From NCBI GenBank assembly GCA_029227815.1, contig CP118523.1, positions 1,116,001-1,180,000 on the forward strand: a DNA stretch of 64,000 nt, given 5' to 3'. Below, one piece after another: positions 1,071 to 33,482 of the stretch. Every line of letters starts with the position of its first letter. Within the stretch, counting starts at the first letter, position 1. The DNA comes from Clostridiaceae bacterium M8S5 (GTDB lineage Bacteria > Bacillota > Clostridia > Tissierellales > MCWD3). Position numbers and translations under genes: made by a program. The notes beneath the pieces are model-generated. The model was not told where the DNA came from. It made no database searches and was given only the letters and a program-made list of their open reading frames with translations.

Positions 1071-1105
1071 ATGACATACATATGTCATATTGCATTTGCT
1101 ATAAT
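1071..1105 (+). promoter_or_regulatory. Palindromic operator plus promoter of Cys-peptide gene 1
   Basis: ATGACATACATATGTCAT (1071-1088) is a perfect 8-bp inverted repeat around CA. It is followed at exactly 29 bases from its first base by TATAAT (1100-1105) preceded by TTTGC, an extended -10 look. The palindrome covers the -35 position, so a dimeric regulator could either block or recruit polymerase here. The same arrangement with the same spacing recurs at 1653-1687. Confidence 0.65.
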
Positions 1106-1140: not shown

Positions 1141-1253
1141 AAATCTAAAAAAACAACATGTTAATGGATTCGCTTATGTGAATTTATTATATGTAGATTT
1201 ATCTGTTTTGGGGAGTTGGTTTATTATATACTTGGGGAGGTATATAATAAGCC
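1141..1253 (+). promoter_or_regulatory. Structured 5' leader of Cys-peptide gene 1
   Basis: Within the long untranslated leader there are three helices: AAATCTA (1141-1147) with TAGATTT (1194-1200), enclosing GGATTC/GAATTT (1166-1171/1180-1185) with the octamer loop GCTTATGT; and a 14-bp stem 1218-1231/1240-1253 with loop TTGGGGAG. No U run follows, so it is not a plain terminator. The GCTTATGT hairpin with a differently sequenced but still paired stem recurs in the second leader at 1714-1733, which suggests selection on RNA structure. Confidence 0.5.
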
Positions 1254-1325: not shown

Positions 1326-1499
1326 ATGAAAAAGTTATTTAAAAGAAATAATGTAGACTCTATTGAGTTTTGTACAACAGTATGGGTATGCAAATGTACT
1401 AAAACTACTGAACCTACTAAGCCAACCAAACCATCACTATCTATATCACCAGTGGAAGATGATTGGCTAGATAACAGAGTGAATTTCTTTGATCCTTAA
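1326..1499 (+). CDS. Short peptide with C-x5-C-x-C motif (copy 1, intact)
   Basis: This reading frame encodes 57 residues starting MKKLFKRNN, with the motif SIEFC-TTVWV-CKC at residues 12-24 and a Pro/Thr/Lys-rich stretch followed by an acidic tail ending DNRVNFFDP. AAAGGGGGA lies about 8 bases before the ATG. Three relatives in the first 4.5 kb share an N-terminal MK(K/N)L, the exact C-x5-C-x-C spacing and often a DNR..DP tail. There is no obvious signal peptide and no modification enzyme gene beside it. It could be a ribosomal peptide precursor, a metal-binding or regulatory peptide; I do not recognise the family. Confidence 0.6.
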   Translation: MKKLFKRNNVDSIEFCTTVWVCKCTKTTEPTKPTKPSLSISPVEDDWLDNRVNFFDP

Positions 1500-1574
1500 A
1501 ATGAAAAAATTATGAAGAACAACGCAAAAGGGATAGCAAATAAAAAATAACAAAAATTAAAATAGCGTACAATT

Positions 1575-1613
1575 AAAGAAGCTTTGGAGACGTCTGTTTC
1601 CAAAGCTTCTTTA
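1575..1613 (+). terminator. Strong intrinsic terminator after Cys-peptide gene 1
   Basis: A perfect 14-bp stem, AAAGAAGCTTTGGA (1575-1588) with TCCAAAGCTTCTTT (1599-1612), with a 10-base loop. The helix ends in its own T-rich arm. Confidence 0.8.
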
Positions 1614-1652
1614 CTAATAATAGCAGAGTGTTAATTTTCAATTTTATAAAAT

Positions 1653-1687
1653 AAGACATACATATGTCATAGTTCTTTTGCTATAAT
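1653..1687 (+). promoter_or_regulatory. Second copy of the palindromic operator/promoter
   Basis: AAGACATACATATGTCAT (1653-1670) keeps a 7-bp inverted repeat around CA, and TATAAT (1682-1687) again lies 29 bases from the first base of the palindrome, preceded by TTTTGC. Sequence between the two elements differs from the copy at 1071, so the palindrome and spacing seem to be what is kept. Confidence 0.6.
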
Positions 1688-1713
1688 AAGCATGAAAAAA
1701 ACATAGGTATGAT

Positions 1714-1760
1714 AAGTTCGCTTATGTGGACTTGTTATAAACTAGACGCATAGTTTATAA
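1714..1760 (+). promoter_or_regulatory. Structured leader of the decayed Cys-peptide copy
   Basis: AAGTTC (1714-1719) pairs with GGACTT (1728-1733) around the conserved loop GCTTATGT (1720-1727). A second perfect 10-bp stem follows, TTATAAACTA (1735-1744) with TAGTTTATAA (1751-1760). The order, hairpin with GCTTATGT and then a second stem, repeats that of the leader at 1141-1253 although the stem sequences differ. Confidence 0.5.
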
Positions 1761-1792
1761 ATTAATACTCAGAAGAGGAGAGGTGATAAAGA

Positions 1793-1930
1793 TTGGTCAA
1801 AAGAAATATTAGAGAATCAATAGAATATTGCACATAAGAATGGGTATGTAAATGCAGTAAACCAATAATAAAACAAAGACCATCACTAACAAAAGATGAT
1901 GGTTAGATAACTGAGTCAATCTATGAGTAA
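1793..1930 (+). pseudogene. Decayed copy of the C-x5-C-x-C peptide gene
   Basis: From a TTG at 1793, after a GAGGAGAGGTG ribosome site, translation gives VKRNIRESIEYCT, a stop, then EWVCKCSK; the Cys spacing equals that of copy 1 (ESIEYC-x5-CKC). A TAA at 1835 interrupts it. Further on, GATGATTGGCTAGATAAC of copy 1 reads GATGATGGTTAGATAAC here, a single-base loss that shifts the frame. Promoter, leader and ribosome site are still present. Sequencing error is possible but two independent lesions make decay more likely. Confidence 0.6.
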
Positions 1931-1980
1931 AAAATAAATTATGAAATAAATTATTTTAAAGAAATAACAGAAAATATAAA

Positions 1981-2017
1981 AAAGCTTTGAATAATTTTAG
2001 TAGTTTTTTCAAGGCTT
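1981..2017. terminator. Bidirectional hairpin downstream of the flavin reductase gene
   Basis: AAAGCTTTGAA (1981-1991) pairs with TTCAAGGCTTT (2008-2018) with one wobble. On the minus strand the stem is followed directly by a U-rich run, which suits it as terminator of the minus-strand gene ending at 2023; on the plus strand it also lies after the decayed peptide gene. Confidence 0.7.
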
Positions 2018-2022
2018 TAAGT

Positions 2023-2610
2023 CTATTTTTTGGTTTTTATTTTCTTTTTTTTCTTTGCAACAGAAAATCCGAAACGACCTAATTTTTTGCCAAGTCCAAA
2101 ATAATTACCATGTGAGTAACATATAGGATTAGCTTTATCTAAACAAAAAGTATCATTTTCATCCAAGTAAGTATCATCAATATTTACAGCTAAAACTTCT
2201 GCCATAAACATATCATGAGAACCAAGTTTTATGATATCTGTTACTTTACATTCAATATTAACTGGACTTTCTCCTATCATAGGGGAATTTACTTTAGTTG
2301 CCTTCTCTATAGAGAGGTTCATATCACTAAATTTATCAAAATCTCTTCCTGACTTAACTCCACAATAATCTGTAGATTTTACTAAAGCTTCAGTAGTTAG
2401 ATTTATAACGAATTCACCAGTTTCTTTGATTATGTCATACGAATACCTACTAGGTCTAATTGATATGTATGTCATTGGTGGATTAGTACATATAGTACCA
2501 GTCCAAGCTATAGTTATGATGTTGTAGTTTTCCTCGCAGTTGCCACAGGATACCATAACAGCAGGCAAAGGATATATCATATTACCAGCCTTCCAAGTTG
2601 TTTTTGCCAT
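2023..2610 (-). CDS. Flavin reductase family protein (FMN-binding split barrel)
   Basis: The 195-residue product starts WKAGNMIYPLPAVMVSCG and continues with NIITIAWTGTICTNPPMTYISIRPSRYS, the pattern of the flavin reductase-like FMN-binding domain (DIM6/NTAB group), where the barrel holds FMN. It would be cytosolic. The last 15 residues are almost all Lys, an unusual basic tail. AAAGGAG lies 8 bases before the ATG. It is a single-gene unit, ended by the hairpin at 1981-2017. Members of this family range from reductases to flavin-binding proteins of unknown activity, so a specific reaction is not claimed. Confidence 0.85.
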   Translation of the reverse strand: MAKTTWKAGNMIYPLPAVMVSCGNCEENYNIITIAWTGTICTNPPMTYISIRPSRYSYDIIKETGEFVINLTTEALVKSTDYCGVKSGRDFDKFSDMNLSIEKATKVNSPMIGESPVNIECKVTDIIKLGSHDMFMAEVLAVNIDDTYLDENDTFCLDKANPICYSHGNYFGLGKKLGRFGFSVAKKKKKIKTKK

Positions 2611-2664
2611 GATTGTTTCTCCTTTATATTAGTGTCCATAAAATATTAACATAGTTAGTATCGT

Positions 2665-2694
2665 TTTACAAGGACTATATTAGTATGGTAGAAT
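2665..2694 (+). promoter_or_regulatory. Probable promoter TTTACA-18-TAGAAT
   Basis: TTTACA at 2665-2670 and TAGAAT at 2689-2694 are separated by 18 bases, upstream of an AAGGAGTGATG ribosome site at 2730. It drives what is now only a gene remnant. Confidence 0.4.
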
Positions 2695-2744
2695 TTATGA
2701 TAGTTATAACAACAAATATAAAAAAAGATAAGGAGTGATGTATT

Positions 2745-2958
2745 ATGATGAATATAGAATATATAAAATCAAACAAAAGTTTCTCCAAAGGTAAGGTATA
2801 TAATTTATAATACTTCAATCTGAATTATTCATGGAACTTTAATGAATATACTGTAACTTTTTAGATTACAATATTTTAACCATTATGAAAGCATACTAGG
2901 TAGTACGTCAAGAATCGATGGAAGTGCTGTGATTAGAAGGATGTTGTACAGTCATTGA
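2745..2958 (+). pseudogene. Probable gene remnant, unassigned
   Basis: A well-placed AAGGAG site precedes ATG 2745, but the frame stops after 21 residues (MMNIEYIKSNKSFSKGKVYN then Leu and stop). Further down, another frame (about 2865-2958) is open for 30 codons and reads HYESILGSTSRIDGSAVIRR, which looks like real protein. The simplest reading is one gene broken by stops and frameshifts. I do not recognise the product. The rest of the 2611-3018 gap holds only the promoters and the ribosome site of the next gene. Confidence 0.3.
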
Positions 2959-3018
2959 TTTTTTGTACTCAATTTAGGGTTAACCTTTGGATATTTTATT
3001 ATTTGAAGGAGATGAATT

Positions 3019-3930
3019 ATGAAATACACTGAATTGTTAAACAAGACACTTAAAATCTATAAACAAAAAGGTAGTAAAGAAGCATATGAGTTTATAGAAA
3101 AAAATAAGAACAATATTATAGGATATAGAAATGAGGCACAAATATATAACTTTAGGTATGCATTAGCTGCATCATCTGGATTAAAGGCAGAAGCGCTTAA
3201 ATTAATAAAAGAAGCCATAGTGGATAAAGGATATTGGTACTCCTATGATTACTTAAAAAGCGATGAAGATTTAGAGTGCTTTAAAGATAACGAAGATTTC
3301 ATAAATATGATTAACCTTTGTAAAGAAAGAGAACAAAGCGCAAGGAATGAATCAAAGCCAATTATGAGAATAATTGATAATAAGAATGAGGAATCAAAGT
3401 TTGTAATGGCACTTCATGGTAACCAAGAGAATATTCAGATGATAAAAGAACAATGGGAAGTGGTTACAGAGCTAGGATACAAATTAGCTATGATTCAATC
3501 ATCACAAGTTCAAGTTACAGATGGATATGTTTGGAGTGATATAAATAAAGGATTTAAGGAGTTACTTGCTCATTATGAGTGCTTACAGAAAGATAAGTAT
3601 GATAACCTTGTAGTAGGAGGTTTTTCAGCTGGCGCAGGAGTTATAGTAGAAGTCATAATAAATCAGAAAATAAAAGCTGACAAGATAATATTAGTTGCAC
3701 CATGGTTTCCAAACTTAGATAAAATAAAAGAAAATATATATATAATTAAAGCTATAAAAACGAAAATATATATGATCATCGGAGATGAGGATGATGACTG
3801 TTTAGAATGTACTAGAGAGTTCAAAGCAATGTTAGATGATAATAATATTGAGCATGATTTTGAGTTTATAAAAGGATTAGACCATTCTTACCCAGATGAT
3901 TTTAACAAATATTTAAATAGAATATTATAG
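3019..3930 (+). CDS. Alpha/beta hydrolase with N-terminal helical region
   Basis: The 303-residue protein has a helical N-terminal third (about 1-110, resembling a short TPR-like segment) and an alpha/beta hydrolase domain from about 125. The nucleophile elbow is GGFSAG with Ser203; the acid is probably Asp256 in GDED and the base His289 in GLDHSYP, in the usual order. VMALHGNQEN near residue 130 resembles the oxyanion-hole strand. No signal peptide is seen, so it is likely a cytosolic esterase or peptidase. GAAGGAG precedes the ATG. Specific substrate unknown. Confidence 0.75.
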   Translation: MKYTELLNKTLKIYKQKGSKEAYEFIEKNKNNIIGYRNEAQIYNFRYALAASSGLKAEALKLIKEAIVDKGYWYSYDYLKSDEDLECFKDNEDFINMINLCKEREQSARNESKPIMRIIDNKNEESKFVMALHGNQENIQMIKEQWEVVTELGYKLAMIQSSQVQVTDGYVWSDINKGFKELLAHYECLQKDKYDNLVVGGFSAGAGVIVEVIINQKIKADKIILVAPWFPNLDKIKENIYIIKAIKTKIYMIIGDEDDDCLECTREFKAMLDDNNIEHDFEFIKGLDHSYPDDFNKYLNRIL

Positions 3931-3959
3931 ATAATATACTTATATAAAATGATATTTTT

Positions 3960-4008
3960 CCCCTATATAGATACGCTTATGTTTCATAGCTATTTATATG
4001 GGGGTTTT
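3960..4008 (+). terminator. Terminator after the hydrolase gene
   Basis: CCCCTATATA (3960-3969) pairs with TATATGGGG (3995-4003), followed by G-TTTTAT. The loop happens to contain GCTTATGT, the same octamer as in the two peptide leaders; chance is possible. Confidence 0.6.
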
Positions 4009-4035
4009 ATGATTTTATGATACGTTGACACTTTA

Positions 4036-4064
4036 TTGACTTAATGGGATAAAAATTATATTAT
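4036..4064 (+). promoter_or_regulatory. Promoter of Cys-peptide gene 3
   Basis: TTGACT (4036-4041), 17 bases, TATTAT (4059-4064), 40 bases before the ATG at 4105. It lacks the palindromic operator of the other two peptide promoters. Confidence 0.5.
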
Positions 4065-4104
4065 TATATTATAAATACATAAAAAATACAAAAGGAGGAA
4101 AAAA

Positions 4105-4254
4105 ATGAAAAAACTAATCAAAAATCAAAGAACAAGCTCTATAGAAGTATGTAAACCAATATGTTTATGTGCTTGCAGAATCTTACCCAATGGCGATGAT
4201 TTTGTGGAAAATAGAAGTATGTTGTATGAAACAGAGATAGATCCATTACCATAA
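4105..4254 (+). CDS. Short peptide with C-x5-C-x-C motif (copy 3, intact)
   Basis: The frame encodes 49 residues starting MKKLIKNQRTSSIEVC, with C-KPICL-CAC in the same C-x5-C-x-C spacing as the copies at 1326 and 1793 (and an extra Cys inside), and an acidic tail with ENR and ending DPLP. AAAGGAGGAA is 6-8 bases before the ATG, an excellent site for so short a gene. It is followed after 23 bases by a broken relative and then a terminator, so the two form one transcription unit. Product role unknown. Confidence 0.6.
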   Translation: MKKLIKNQRTSSIEVCKPICLCACRILPNGDDFVENRSMLYETEIDPLP

Positions 4255-4277
4255 TAGACATATAAGGAAGATAGGTT

Positions 4278-4427
4278 ATGGATTATGAAGAATTTATTAA
4301 AAAGTAAAATATTATTATTACTGAAGAGTGTAGGGCAAGAGGCACATGTCGTTGTATGATATTGCCTTACAGTGTAGAAACTGACTACTGGTTTGAAAGA
4401 AGAGAAAGAGCAAGTGCAATATTCTAG
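4278..4427 (+). pseudogene. Broken C-x5-C-x-C peptide gene (copy 4)
   Basis: From ATG 4278 the frame reads nine codons to a TAA, then stays open for TEECRARGTCRCMILPYSVE up to the stop at 4425, with the C-x5-C-x-C spacing intact. The alternative start at 4285 gives MKNLLKSK, the expected family N-terminus, but in another frame, so a single indel between about 4305 and 4325 separates head and motif. Either the gene is dead or a frameshift joins the parts; I prefer decay. Confidence 0.5.
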
Positions 4428-8567: not shown

Positions 8568-9773
8568 TTATGCGTTAAACATAGTATTTTCATTTTTAAA
8601 AGAGTAAGTTATAGCTTTAGTCAATACAAATGCAGTTAATAAAGACGAACCTATAGTGAATAAAAATGATTGCATATCTAAATTAAAATTAAGAATGGCT
8701 TTAATAGATGCTATGCTTCCATAGACTGGTATAGCATATTTATAACTGCTTATTTCGCTACTACCAAACATAGTAGAGAAAGATGCCAACATTACAATCA
8801 TAAATACAGGAGTAACATAAGTCGCAGCTTCCTTTACAGTTTTAGCCTTTACAGATATCAAACAAACTAAACCAACGTTTATTCCAACTAGAGTTATCAT
8901 GATAAGTAATAACTGAATGAATTGCATTATAGAAAACTGAGGTAGACCTCCACCAACAGGTATAATACTAGAAGCAAATGGTACTGATATAGCAACTCCT
9001 ATAAAAGAACAAAGTGCGCTTATAATAGCTATGATTCCAAGGCCAGCCATTTTACCATATGCGATACTGTTTCTGCTAATAGGGGCAAGTAATAGATTAG
9101 CCATAGTACCTCTTTCCTTTTCCCCTGCGATAGATTCCATTCCAACTCCCATAGTAGAAGAGAACAGTATTATACCAATAAGCATAGGTAATATCATGCT
9201 CAACATTTTACCCTTTTGCTTATTTTTATCAACTATAACACCTTCACTATTTGTAGCGTCAATAGAAAATGCTTTAGTGTAATTTATATTTTCAAATCTT
9301 TTAGTCAAAATATCAGTTTCATAAGGTTCTAATACGCTAGATAAAAACTGTTTTCTAGATTTATTAGAATAATCTTCAGATGGATTGTAGAAAGTCTTTA
9401 TTTCTGGCAATTTACTCTCAGATTTATAGCTAGCTATCTTATTATCAAAATCAACGTCAAATGATACTAGTAAATCAACAGTACCTTTCTTAATAGAATC
9501 TTTTATAGTAGATATGTCTTCACCATTAATATATTTGATTTTAATATTATTTTTTTCTATACTATTGTAATAGTTGTTAAAGCTTTCTGGACTATTTTGA
9601 ACATAAACTATAGGTATATGTTCATTTATATTACTCATCATGCTAGCTGATAACCTTCCTAGCAGAGCATAAGTAGCAAATAAACTTATAGCTGGCAATA
9701 TAAACAAAGAAATTATTAATCTTTTATCTGTAAAAACTCTTTTTAATTCTTTTTTAATAATAGCTAATATCAT
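8568..9773 (-). CDS. ABC-2 type exporter permease (NatB-like)
   Basis: This 401-residue membrane protein has one span near the N-terminus (VFTDKRLIISLFILPAISLFATYALLG), a soluble outside domain of about 150 residues, and five or six spans in the C-terminal half, the layout of NatB/YhaP-like ABC-2 permeases. ESIAGEKERGTMANLLLAP around residue 215 is the typical cytoplasmic coupling segment of the family. It starts 11 bases after the ATPase gene, with which it forms the transporter. Substrate may be sodium, a drug or a peptide; the sequence does not say. Confidence 0.85.
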   Translation of the reverse strand: MILAIIKKELKRVFTDKRLIISLFILPAISLFATYALLGRLSASMMSNINEHIPIVYVQNSPESFNNYYNSIEKNNIKIKYINGEDISTIKDSIKKGTVDLLVSFDVDFDNKIASYKSESKLPEIKTFYNPSEDYSNKSRKQFLSSVLEPYETDILTKRFENINYTKAFSIDATNSEGVIVDKNKQKGKMLSMILPMLIGIILFSSTMGVGMESIAGEKERGTMANLLLAPISRNSIAYGKMAGLGIIAIISALCSFIGVAISVPFASSIIPVGGGLPQFSIMQFIQLLLIMITLVGINVGLVCLISVKAKTVKEAATYVTPVFMIVMLASFSTMFGSSEISSYKYAIPVYGSIASIKAILNFNLDMQSFLFTIGSSLLTAFVLTKAITYSFKNENTMFNA

Positions 9774-10913: not shown

Positions 10914-11483
10914 TTATTTGGCGGTAGAAACCTTATTTTGTTCTATTTCATGTTTAAAAACTTTGCTTACACTCTTATATAGCATAACAGTGAGGACAGA
11001 ATTAGCTGTTGCTTTAATTAAGTTAAACGGAACTATAGCTGGCAAGATCATAGCTTTGACAGCAGGCAAAGGAACACCTAAAAATTTAGTAGTAAAAAAC
11101 AGATTTAAAGGAATCATAATTAATGTCATGCATATAGATCCTACTGTTAAACCTAATATAGCGCCTTTAAGTGAATGGAATTTTCTATAGATTAGTCCGG
11201 CCATTATTACAAGAGTACCAGTTGCTATAATATGCATAATTGCGCCAATAATACCGCTGTCTGCATCCACTGTTAAAGCCTGTATAGTGGATATAATAAA
11301 TGTAACTATTAGCCCAGGGATTGGACCATATAAGAAAGTAGCAATCAGAGCTGGAATATCTCCTGGTTCATATTTCAAAAACGGAGCAGATGGTATTATA
11401 GGAAACCTTGCGTAAATCATTAACAACGTACCAATAGCTGCTAACATCGCTAATTTAACCATTTTGTTAACATTATTTTTCAT
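10914..11483 (-). CDS. ribU: Riboflavin ECF transporter S component
   Basis: This 189-residue protein has about six hydrophobic spans and the RibU features: an N-terminal basic MNKMVKLAMLAAIGTLLM segment, FPIIPSAPFLKYEPGDIPALI (the substrate-loop region of RibU proteins) and a Lys-rich tail. It captures riboflavin and works with the shared ECF module (EcfA, EcfA', EcfT), not encoded here. The assignment is firm because an FMN riboswitch lies directly upstream (11545-11660), with a hairpin that includes the ribosome site between the two. Confidence 0.93.
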   Translation of the reverse strand: MKNNVNKMVKLAMLAAIGTLLMIYARFPIIPSAPFLKYEPGDIPALIATFLYGPIPGLIVTFIISTIQALTVDADSGIIGAIMHIIATGTLVIMAGLIYRKFHSLKGAILGLTVGSICMTLIMIPLNLFFTTKFLGVPLPAVKAMILPAIVPFNLIKATANSVLTVMLYKSVSKVFKHEIEQNKVSTAK

Positions 11484-11521: not shown

Positions 11522-11544
11522 TCAATTCATTAAAAACTATCTAT

Positions 11545-11660
11545 CTTCTTCCATCCAGACTATACTGTCGGCTCTGGAATCTCACCAGATCAGCGTTAAG
11601 CTCGCGGGCTAACAGAAAAACTGTATTACCGCCGGTAGGGAATCTAACCCTGCCCTGAAG
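11545..11660 (-). ncRNA. FMN riboswitch (RFN element)
   Basis: Read on the minus strand, the segment contains the RFN boxes in order: CTTCAGGGCAGGG, TTCCCTACCGGCGGT, AGCCCGCGAGC, GATCTGGTGAGATTCCAGAG, GCCGACAGTATAGTCTGGAT and GGAAGAAG closing the basal stem. It binds flavin mononucleotide and lowers expression of the downstream riboflavin transporter. Confidence 0.97.
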
Positions 11661-12022
11661 ACTATATTATTGTAATTTAATTCTAACATGAATAAATGAA
11701 GAATACAAGACAAAATACATAGCCCATAAATTTACAAAAATGTAAAAAAATAATACCCTTAGGTACTTGTTCAGTATTTTATATTCTGTTTGTATTTCTA
11801 AATATAGTATATAACAAAAGTATGATTTGTGCAAGTATTTTTAAGAAAAAAAGAGTAAATAGAAGAAAAAATATAAAGAGGCAATAACGACCTATGAGAT
11901 AACCGGTAATTATAGTTTTAAAATCAGGCTGTATAGTATACAATATGAGTATTCTAATTTTATAATAAGTGTAGTTTTAAGGTAATAAATAAATCTTTGC
12001 AACCAGAAAGGAGTAAGCAGGC
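11661..12022. other. Intergenic stretch between the FMN riboswitch and helD
   Basis: Nothing coding is seen on either strand. It must hold the divergent promoters for ribU and helD; the AT content makes single -10 boxes uninformative. AAAGGAG at 12006-12012 is the helD ribosome site. Confidence 0.5.
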
Positions 12023-18468: not shown

Positions 18469-18864
18469 ATGAGTACTTTAGATTTATTATTACAATTAGA
18501 CCAAAGCAAGCTTAAAAAGCCTAGCAAAGAAGTAGAAATGAAAAGATTATCAGAGCTATTGGGAGAAAAAATGATATTTAAGGTGGAAGCTTTAACACCT
18601 GAGAAAATGGATGAAATCCAGACAATGAGCACAGACGAAGAAAAAGAGACAATGAACATGGGTGAATTACAGCTATTAGCAGTAATGGAAGGTGTAAAAG
18701 AGCCAAATTTTAAGTCAAAAGAACTAATGGATAAGTTCGGAGTATATACCCCTAAAGATTTAATTAGAAAGATATTACTTCCAGGTGAGATAATCACTCT
18801 TTATGGAATAGTAGGCGATTTAAGTGGATTTGATGGTGGAGCAATAGAAGAAGTAAAAAACTAA
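18469..18864 (+). CDS. xkdN: Tail assembly chaperone, zero-frame product, cassette 1
   Basis: The 131-residue XkdN-like chaperone (MSTLDLLLQLDQSKLKKPSKE, LSELLGEKMIFKVEALTPEKM) coats the tape measure during tail assembly. It ends at codon EEVKN with the heptamer A AAA AAC immediately before the stop (18855-18861), the canonical site for -1 slippage. A conserved -1 frame continues to 19046, so two products are expected, as with gpG and gpGT of lambda. Near-identical to the gene at 33087. Confidence 0.9.
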   Translation: MSTLDLLLQLDQSKLKKPSKEVEMKRLSELLGEKMIFKVEALTPEKMDEIQTMSTDEEKETMNMGELQLLAVMEGVKEPNFKSKELMDKFGVYTPKDLIRKILLPGEIITLYGIVGDLSGFDGGAIEEVKN

Positions 18865-33086: not shown

Positions 33087-33482
33087 ATGAGTACTTTAGA
33101 TTTATTGTTACAATTAGACGAAAGCAAACTTAAAAAGCCTAGCAAAGAAGTAGAGATGAAAAGATTATCAGAGCTATTGGGAGAAAAAATAATATTTAAG
33201 GTGGAAGCTCTAACACCTAAAAAAATGGATGAAATTCAAACAATGAGCACAGACGAAGAAAAAGAGACAATGAACATGGGTGAATTACAGCTATTAGCAG
33301 TAATGGAAGGTGTAAAAGAGCCAAACTTTAAATCAAAAGAACTAATGGATAAATTTGGAGTATATACCCCTAAAGATTTAATTAGAAAGATATTACTTCC
33401 AGGTGAGATAATCACTCTTTATGGTATCGTAGGCGATTTAAGTGGATTTGATGGTGGAGCAATAGAAGAAGTAAAAAACTAA
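33087..33482 (+). CDS. xkdN: Tail assembly chaperone, zero-frame product, cassette 2
   Basis: A 131-residue XkdN-like protein with only a few substitutions from the gene at 18469 (for example Glu for Gln at 12, Ile for Met at 35). The slippery heptamer A AAA AAC is at 33473-33479 just before the stop, as in cassette 1. Confidence 0.9.
   Translation: MSTLDLLLQLDESKLKKPSKEVEMKRLSELLGEKIIFKVEALTPKKMDEIQTMSTDEEKETMNMGELQLLAVMEGVKEPNFKSKELMDKFGVYTPKDLIRKILLPGEIITLYGIVGDLSGFDGGAIEEVKN

What the first reader, a model, noticed from the sequence alone, without database searches (positions are those of the whole stretch)
1326..4427. Family of short genes encoding a C-x5-C-x-C peptide
Four genes in 3 kb (1326, 1793, 4105, 4278) keep MK(K/N)L, exact C-x5-C-x-C spacing and an acidic tail often ending in DP, though otherwise divergent. 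Two are intact and two are broken, a birth-and-death pattern usual for secreted or signalling peptides and bacteriocin-like products. No modification or export gene stands directly beside them, but an ABC exporter lies at 8.5-10.5 kb and a peptide-sensing type kinase at 5.7 kb.
Basis: partly seen in the sequence, partly recalled or inferred. Interest (0 to 1): 0.72.

Follow-up and report, generated by a model that had tools for sequence, protein, structure and literature searches.

The report
Scattered precursor genes for radical-SAM peptides
Two of these four tiny genes are intact, and all four belong to a family of about 59 short cysteine-rich peptide genes scattered over 27 places in this bacterium's chromosome; they most likely encode raw peptides that one or more distant radical-SAM (CcpM) enzymes convert into crosslinked antimicrobial or signalling peptides.

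Summary
In detail: two intact and two broken short genes share MK(K/N)L..C-x5-C-x-C. They belong to a much larger family. I counted about 59 copies in 27 loci of this 4.68-Mb genome and found at least 30 in the one other genome of its genus. C-x5-C-x-C is only a subtype (13 of 56); the common core is MKKLxKK..C-x-C-x-C. The genome carries three operons of the known CcpM radical-SAM peptide-maturation system (TIGR04068 plus TIGR04066), and two have family members directly beside the maturase. A profile built only from CcpM-adjacent precursors ranks the two intact window genes first and second of 1,052 window segments. Fifty of the 59 copies, including all in the window, lie more than 15 kb from any CcpM, so they are orphan precursors, probably matured in trans as in prochlorosins. 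About 17 copies share an ECF-type promoter (GGAAC-N18-ATC), also found at one CcpM operon and in the sister genome; the window copies lack it. The nearby exporter and kinase keep their order in the sister genome without these peptides, so they are not specific partners. In a published Paenibacillus cluster of this type the peptide is antibacterial. Modification, export and activity are not shown here.

The parts
1326..1499 (+). Intact orphan precursor gene, 57 aa, MKKLFKRNNVDSIEFCTTVWVCKC...
1793..1930 (+). Broken precursor copy (TTG start, in-frame TAA and TAG stops); apparent tandem duplicate of 1326, including its upstream region
4105..4254 (+). Intact orphan precursor gene, 49 aa, MKKLIKNQRTSSIEVCKPICLCACRILPNGDDF...
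4285..4427 (+). Broken precursor copy (frameshift after MKNLLK...); C-x5-C-x-C and ILP tail kept in another frame
1072..1087 (.). TGACATACATATGTCA near-palindrome upstream of 1326 (candidate operator)
1654..1669 (.). Same near-palindrome upstream of 1793 (1 mismatch); found in no other fetched locus
1163..1188 (+). Predicted 5'-leader RNA hairpin with CGC-TTAT-GTG tip, upstream of 1326
1712..1735 (+). Same predicted hairpin upstream of 1793, with paired changes in the stem
4036..4064 (+). Sigma-A-like promoter (TTGACT-17-TATTAT) upstream of 4105; the ECF-type promoter of sister copies is absent here
   Evidence: consensus match only

Best explanation
The four window genes are orphan members (two alive, two decayed) of a lineage-expanded family of RiPP precursors of the CLI_3235/CcpM kind. 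Each precursor has a basic leader (MKKLxKK...) and a Cys core (C-x-C-x-C or C-x5-C-x-C) followed by a variable tail with acidic residues about 5-10 positions after the last Cys. Shown by sequence: the family, its copy number and dispersal, its co-occurrence with CcpM, purifying selection in recent paralogues, and an ECF-type promoter shared by some orphans and one CcpM operon. Inferred: CcpM made at a distant operon recognises the leader and installs thioether links, perhaps Cys to Asp/Glu as in QhpD and PapB ranthipeptides; a subtilase removes the leader; an exporter releases the peptide, which acts against neighbouring bacteria or as a signal. The window copies are expressed, if at all, from their own promoters.
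For: About 59 copies in 27 loci, 50 of them more than 15 kb from any CcpM. Three CcpM (TIGR04068, 544-615 bits against a cut-off of 500) with TIGR04066 beside each; operon 1 also has TIGR04069 and a QhpE-like subtilase, operon 2 a TIGR04069-like protein, operon 3 a subtilase. Family members lie beside CcpM in operons 1 and 2; in distant families the best hits outside the genus lie beside CcpM (G454, G157, G415, G293). A profile from CcpM-adjacent precursors alone finds the window genes. GGAAC-N18-ATC lies upstream of 17 of 58 copies (0.5 expected), genome-wide 23 strict sites against 1 in the backwards control, and recurs in the sister genome, including 5 of 8 freshly fetched precursors at 65-80 nt. 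dN below dS in paralogues. In the SacP23 cluster of Paenibacillus a CLI_3235 precursor, ECF sigma, exporter, TIGR04068, TIGR04066, TIGR04069 and subtilase sit together and the product is antibacterial (PMC10731318). Acidic residue at +5 to +9 after the last Cys in 62 of 75 tails (shuffle mean 45, maximum 57).
Against: The window copies score nothing against TIGR04065, have no maturase nearby and lack the shared promoter. Two of four are dead. 1326 has Trp where most members have the first Cys of C-x-C-x-C. Which maturase, if any, acts on them cannot be read from sequence. The +5 to +9 window for acidic residues was chosen after looking. Copy counts come partly from a profile that includes those copies.
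Confidence: 0.76

Rival explanations
1. The peptides are unmodified small metal- or thiol-binding proteins that only resemble CcpM precursors through a Lys-rich start and C-x-C.
For: C-x-C and C-x-C-x-C are common metal ligands; most copies lie far from any maturase.
Against: Members lie beside CcpM in both genomes of the genus and beside CcpM in distant families; a promoter is shared with a CcpM operon; none of 56 CcpM-negative class genomes tested had a strong hit; no Pfam metal-binding family is recovered.
Confidence: 0.1
2. The precursors were once CcpM substrates but the orphan copies are mostly relics spread by duplication, and only those beside CcpM still work.
For: Two of four window copies are broken; the block lacks them in the sister species; the window copies lack the shared promoter.
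Against: Most orphan copies are intact with good ribosome-binding sites and many keep a conserved promoter in both species; paralogue dN is below dS; 4105 keeps a tail motif (ILPxGDDF) seen in a sister-species copy.
Confidence: 0.15
3. The window peptides are secreted signals sensed by the adjacent two-component system and exported by the ABC transporter at 8.5-10.5 kb.
For: Proximity in the window; the kinase has membrane-spanning stretches.
Against: The same regulator, kinase and ABC-2 genes stand in the same order in the sister genome with no peptide genes in the block; the transporter is an ABC-2 type with no peptidase domain.
Confidence: 0.05
4. A variant on the chemistry within the best explanation: sactipeptide rather than ranthipeptide links, with Cys sulphur joined to alpha-carbons in the core and not to Asp/Glu side chains.
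For: The SacP23 authors call their product a sactipeptide (PMC10731318), although its links are not mapped.
Against: Among the best NCBIfam scores of a CcpM here are both a sactipeptide maturase (RumMC) and PapB/QhpD-type ranthipeptide maturases; the neighbouring subtilase is QhpE-like (below its cut-off); acidic residues are placed non-randomly after the Cys core.
Confidence: 0.35

Closest known systems
CLI_3235 bacteriocin precursors with CcpM maturase (TIGR04065, TIGR04066, TIGR04068, TIGR04069), for example SacP23 of Paenibacillus polymyxa
   Same: Leader MKKLxKK and Cys-rich core; complete maturation operons of this kind in the same genome with family members beside two of the maturases
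   Different: Window copies fall below the TIGR04065 model, are shorter with fewer Cys, and lie far from any maturase; about 50 orphan copies in one genome
Prochlorosins / synechococsins (ProcM, SyncM lanthipeptides)
   Same: Many precursor genes scattered over a genome with few maturases; fast-diverging cores behind a conserved leader
   Different: Radical-SAM/SPASM enzyme rather than LanM; short basic leader rather than a Nif11 leader; an ECF-type promoter shared by many copies
Ranthipeptides (PapB freyrasin, SCIFF) and QhpD/QhpE
   Same: Related SPASM maturases, a QhpE-like subtilase, acidic residues after the Cys
   Different: No C-x3-D repeat (PapB), not six Cys in 45 residues (SCIFF), no QhpC subunit seen
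Clo7bot Cys-rich peptides (TIGR04333/TIGR04334)
   Same: Short clostridial Cys peptides in multiple copies with a radical-SAM maturase
   Different: The model does not match

Membership tests
TIGR04065 CLI_3235 bacteriocin precursor | Score above the curated cut-off of 26 bits | tested here: not met
   No match for either intact window copy at E up to 10; only the copy at 3420950 passes (33-34 bits)
TIGR04065 CLI_3235 bacteriocin precursor | Leader and Cys core shared with CcpM-adjacent precursors | tested here: met
   Profile of 24 CcpM-adjacent precursors: E 4.5e-8 and 1e-5 for the window copies
CcpM peptide-maturation system | Maturase TIGR04068 in the same genome | tested here: met
   Three over cut-off
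CcpM peptide-maturation system | Maturase next to the precursor | tested here: not met
   Nearest CcpM 386 kb from the window genes
CcpM peptide-maturation system | Radical-SAM modification of the peptide | not testable with these tools
   Needs co-expression and mass spectrometry
Prochlorosin-like dispersed precursor system | Many precursors scattered far from few maturases | tested here: met
   59 copies, 27 loci, 50 more than 15 kb from any CcpM
Prochlorosin-like dispersed precursor system | LanM synthetase | not tested
   LanM was not searched for; the maturase linked here is a radical-SAM enzyme
Clo7bot (TIGR04333) | Match to the 34-position model | tested here: not met
   Only a chance-level hit elsewhere, 12.5 bits against a cut-off of 31
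ECF-type promoter regulon of the sister copies | GGAAC-N18-ATC upstream | tested here: not met
   Absent upstream of the window copies, present for 17 of 58 family copies

The most novel reading that the evidence does not exclude
A clostridial genome runs a prochlorosin-like combinatorial peptide system on radical-SAM chemistry: about 50 scattered orphan precursors are matured in trans by one to three CcpM enzymes, many switched on together with a CcpM operon by one alternative (ECF-type) sigma factor, while the precursor repertoire is replaced almost completely between sister species.
Probability: 0.5. Interest if true: 0.78.

Novelty: new variant of a known kind. Interest (0 to 1): 0.6.

Why it matters
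CcpM/CLI_3235 systems are annotated as small clusters with one or a few precursors beside the maturase. Here precursor genes outnumber maturases about twenty to one, are scattered over the chromosome, and many share a promoter with a maturase operon, which cluster-based genome mining would miss. It offers a natural substrate library for a radical-SAM enzyme, a testable case of one enzyme with many substrates outside lanthipeptides, and a promoter signature that finds further precursors: it pointed to one at 1556761 that had not been in the list, and to other Cys-rich peptide genes.

Tried and rejected
NCBIfam and Pfam scans of the two window peptides: nothing meaningful. Clo7bot model: no match. 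Rfam over the first 12 kb: only an FMN riboswitch. Kinase or exporter as partner: rejected on synteny. Search for an ECF sigma gene with its own copy of the promoter: none of the 23 Sigma70_r4_2 loci carries a convincing site, and none resembles a sigma gene in the CcpM loci, so the sigma factor is not identified. Upstream hairpin and palindrome of 1326/1793 as a family-wide element: they are confined to the window copies.

Full report
What is there. The window holds two intact short genes (1326-1499, 57 aa; 4105-4254, 49 aa) and two broken copies (1793, with two in-frame stops; 4285-4427, frameshifted). All four have C-x5-C-x-C. The broken copies are recognisably paralogues of the intact ones: 1793 follows 1326 through SIE-x-C-T, and the fourth copy keeps the CxC-x-ILP stretch of 4105.

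The family. A three-row profile (two window genes and one distant copy) searched in the whole genome and its relatives (100 genomes) gave many hits in this genome and in the one other genome of its genus, and essentially noise elsewhere. Reading the fetched loci showed a uniform kind of gene: 39-57 aa (median 43), a ribosome-binding site, MK(K/N/R/S)LxKK, then C-x-C-x-C and a variable tail. A 51-row profile gave 50 places at E below 0.01 in this genome and 30 matches in the sister genome. My curated count here is 59 copies in 27 loci, including the two broken window copies and one at 1556761 that was noticed only because the shared promoter lies in front of it. C-x5-C-x-C occurs in 13 of 56 intact copies, C-x-C-x-C in 40. 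Recent paralogue pairs have dN 0.22-0.45 and dS mostly 0.6-1.2 where defined, which points to translation and constraint.

Link to a known maturation system. The genome has three CcpM radical-SAM maturases over the curated cut-off. Beside each lies TIGR04066; operon 1 also has the acyl-carrier-related protein TIGR04069 and a QhpE-like subtilase, operon 2 a TIGR04069-like protein just under the cut-off, operon 3 a subtilase. Four family precursors stand in front of CcpM in operon 1, and four downstream of it in operon 2, one of which is a true TIGR04065 member. In 14 other class genomes with CcpM, the best family hits lie within about 3 kb of CcpM in four of them, while 56 CcpM-negative class genomes gave only weak, mostly partial hits. 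The cleanest test is: a profile made only from 24 CcpM-adjacent precursors of six genomes, with no orphan and no window sequence, ranks 4105 and 1326 first and second among 1,052 segments of the window (E 4.5e-8, 1e-5; next 0.07). The family is therefore CcpM-linked although the window genes themselves lie 386 kb from the nearest CcpM.

A shared promoter. Upstream regions of the copies are enriched in TTGGAACAAA. The full element is GGAAC-N18-ATC(W)TA, the look of an ECF-type -35/-10 pair, mostly 55-110 nt before the start codon. It precedes 17 of 58 copies against 0.5 expected. Genome-wide the strict form has 23 sites against 1 for the pattern read backwards; by my reading of the downstream genes 16 precede family precursors and two more precede other small Cys-rich genes, one of them in front of a different radical-SAM gene. 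Two of the sites lie in CcpM operon 1 (729937, 730329). In the sister genome 8 of 10 sites in the first loci and 5 of 6 in freshly fetched loci precede precursors. A published cluster of this type, SacP23, encodes an ECF sigma factor next to its CLI_3235 precursor (PMC10731318), which fits, but I could not identify the sigma factor here. The window copies do not have this element: 1326 and 1793 share a different upstream block (near-palindrome TGACATACATATGTCA, TATAAT, a predicted hairpin), and 4105 has a sigma-A-like promoter.

Birth and death. In the sister genome the flavin reductase, hydrolase, response regulator, kinase, ABC-2 exporter and further genes stand in the same order, with 167 bp between hydrolase and regulator ORFs and no peptide gene in the block. 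The exporter and kinase are therefore not specific partners. CcpM operon 1 is syntenic in both genomes: CcpM is 78% identical, the subtilase 53%, yet the best precursor match between the two is 41-48%, mostly leader. Precursors turn over much faster than their enzyme.

How it probably works. Leader recognition by CcpM, thioether formation on the Cys core, leader removal by the subtilase and export are inferred from the family (SacP23; sactipeptide and ranthipeptide enzymes, PMC8172795). Acidic residues are concentrated 5-10 positions after the last Cys: 62 of 75 tails have one at +5 to +9 against a shuffled mean of 45 and maximum of 57. In QhpD substrates Cys is linked to Glu or Asp 6-9 residues away (Cys7-Glu16, Cys27-Asp33, Cys41-Asp49) and in PapB four away. 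Among the closest other NCBIfam models of CcpM are a sactipeptide maturase (RumMC) and PapB/QhpD-type enzymes, so Cys-Asp/Glu links are a reasonable but unproved guess. The product is most likely an antibacterial or signalling peptide; only SacP23, a distant relative, has been shown to inhibit Gram-positive bacteria.

What is new. The chemistry and the operon type are known. The dispersal of about 50 orphan precursors and the shared promoter are, as far as the held literature shows, not described for this system; the nearest parallel is the prochlorosin/synechococsin system (79 putative precursors for SyncM, scattered over the genome; PMC10783134). The window copies are new members of the wider family, not of TIGR04065 as defined by its cut-off.

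Limits.

Noticed in passing
window 11539-11666 (-), gene 10914-11483 (-): FMN riboswitch (118 bits) in front of a membrane protein resembling a riboflavin ECF-transporter S component (my reading of its sequence).
   Followed up: no
L148 4968-9827 (G000:C1:4660967 onward): Another RiPP-like locus: small peptide MNTLSFGIIKANNPVGALGNNCNGCNGCLSEPTLR, two radical-SAM-like genes and an ABC transporter, with the same GGAACA-N17-ATCATA promoter in front.
   Followed up: partly
L147 4581 and 8835-9352 (G000:C1:3282.5-3287.4 kb): A second peptide family (MSLxKFxxY...Cys...) in several copies, one copy with the same promoter element.
   Followed up: partly
L083 4495-10109 (G000:C1:3686-3692 kb): Four radical-SAM-like genes in a row with a small Cys-rich ORF (MKAIKPLNDNFISPIGGLCPLDCGSDDYCGKCEGICKPWCR).
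   Followed up: no
window 1072-1087, 1654-1669, 1163-1188, 1712-1735: 1326 and 1793 share a near-palindrome over the -35 region and a predicted 5'-leader hairpin with paired changes; seen nowhere else in the fetched loci.
   Followed up: partly
window 3974-3982: A third CGCTTATGT lies inside the terminator-like hairpin after the hydrolase gene; probably coincidence.
   Followed up: partly
window 18757-18782 and 33375-33400 (-): Identical 26-mers (GGAAGTAATATCTTTCTAATTAAATC) 14.6 kb apart, perhaps a repeated element.
   Followed up: no
G000:C1:2531396 (-): The ECF-type site also precedes a 311-aa apparently secreted protein (MKKSIFTLMLIFTIVFSMTL...), a possible non-peptide regulon member.
   Followed up: no
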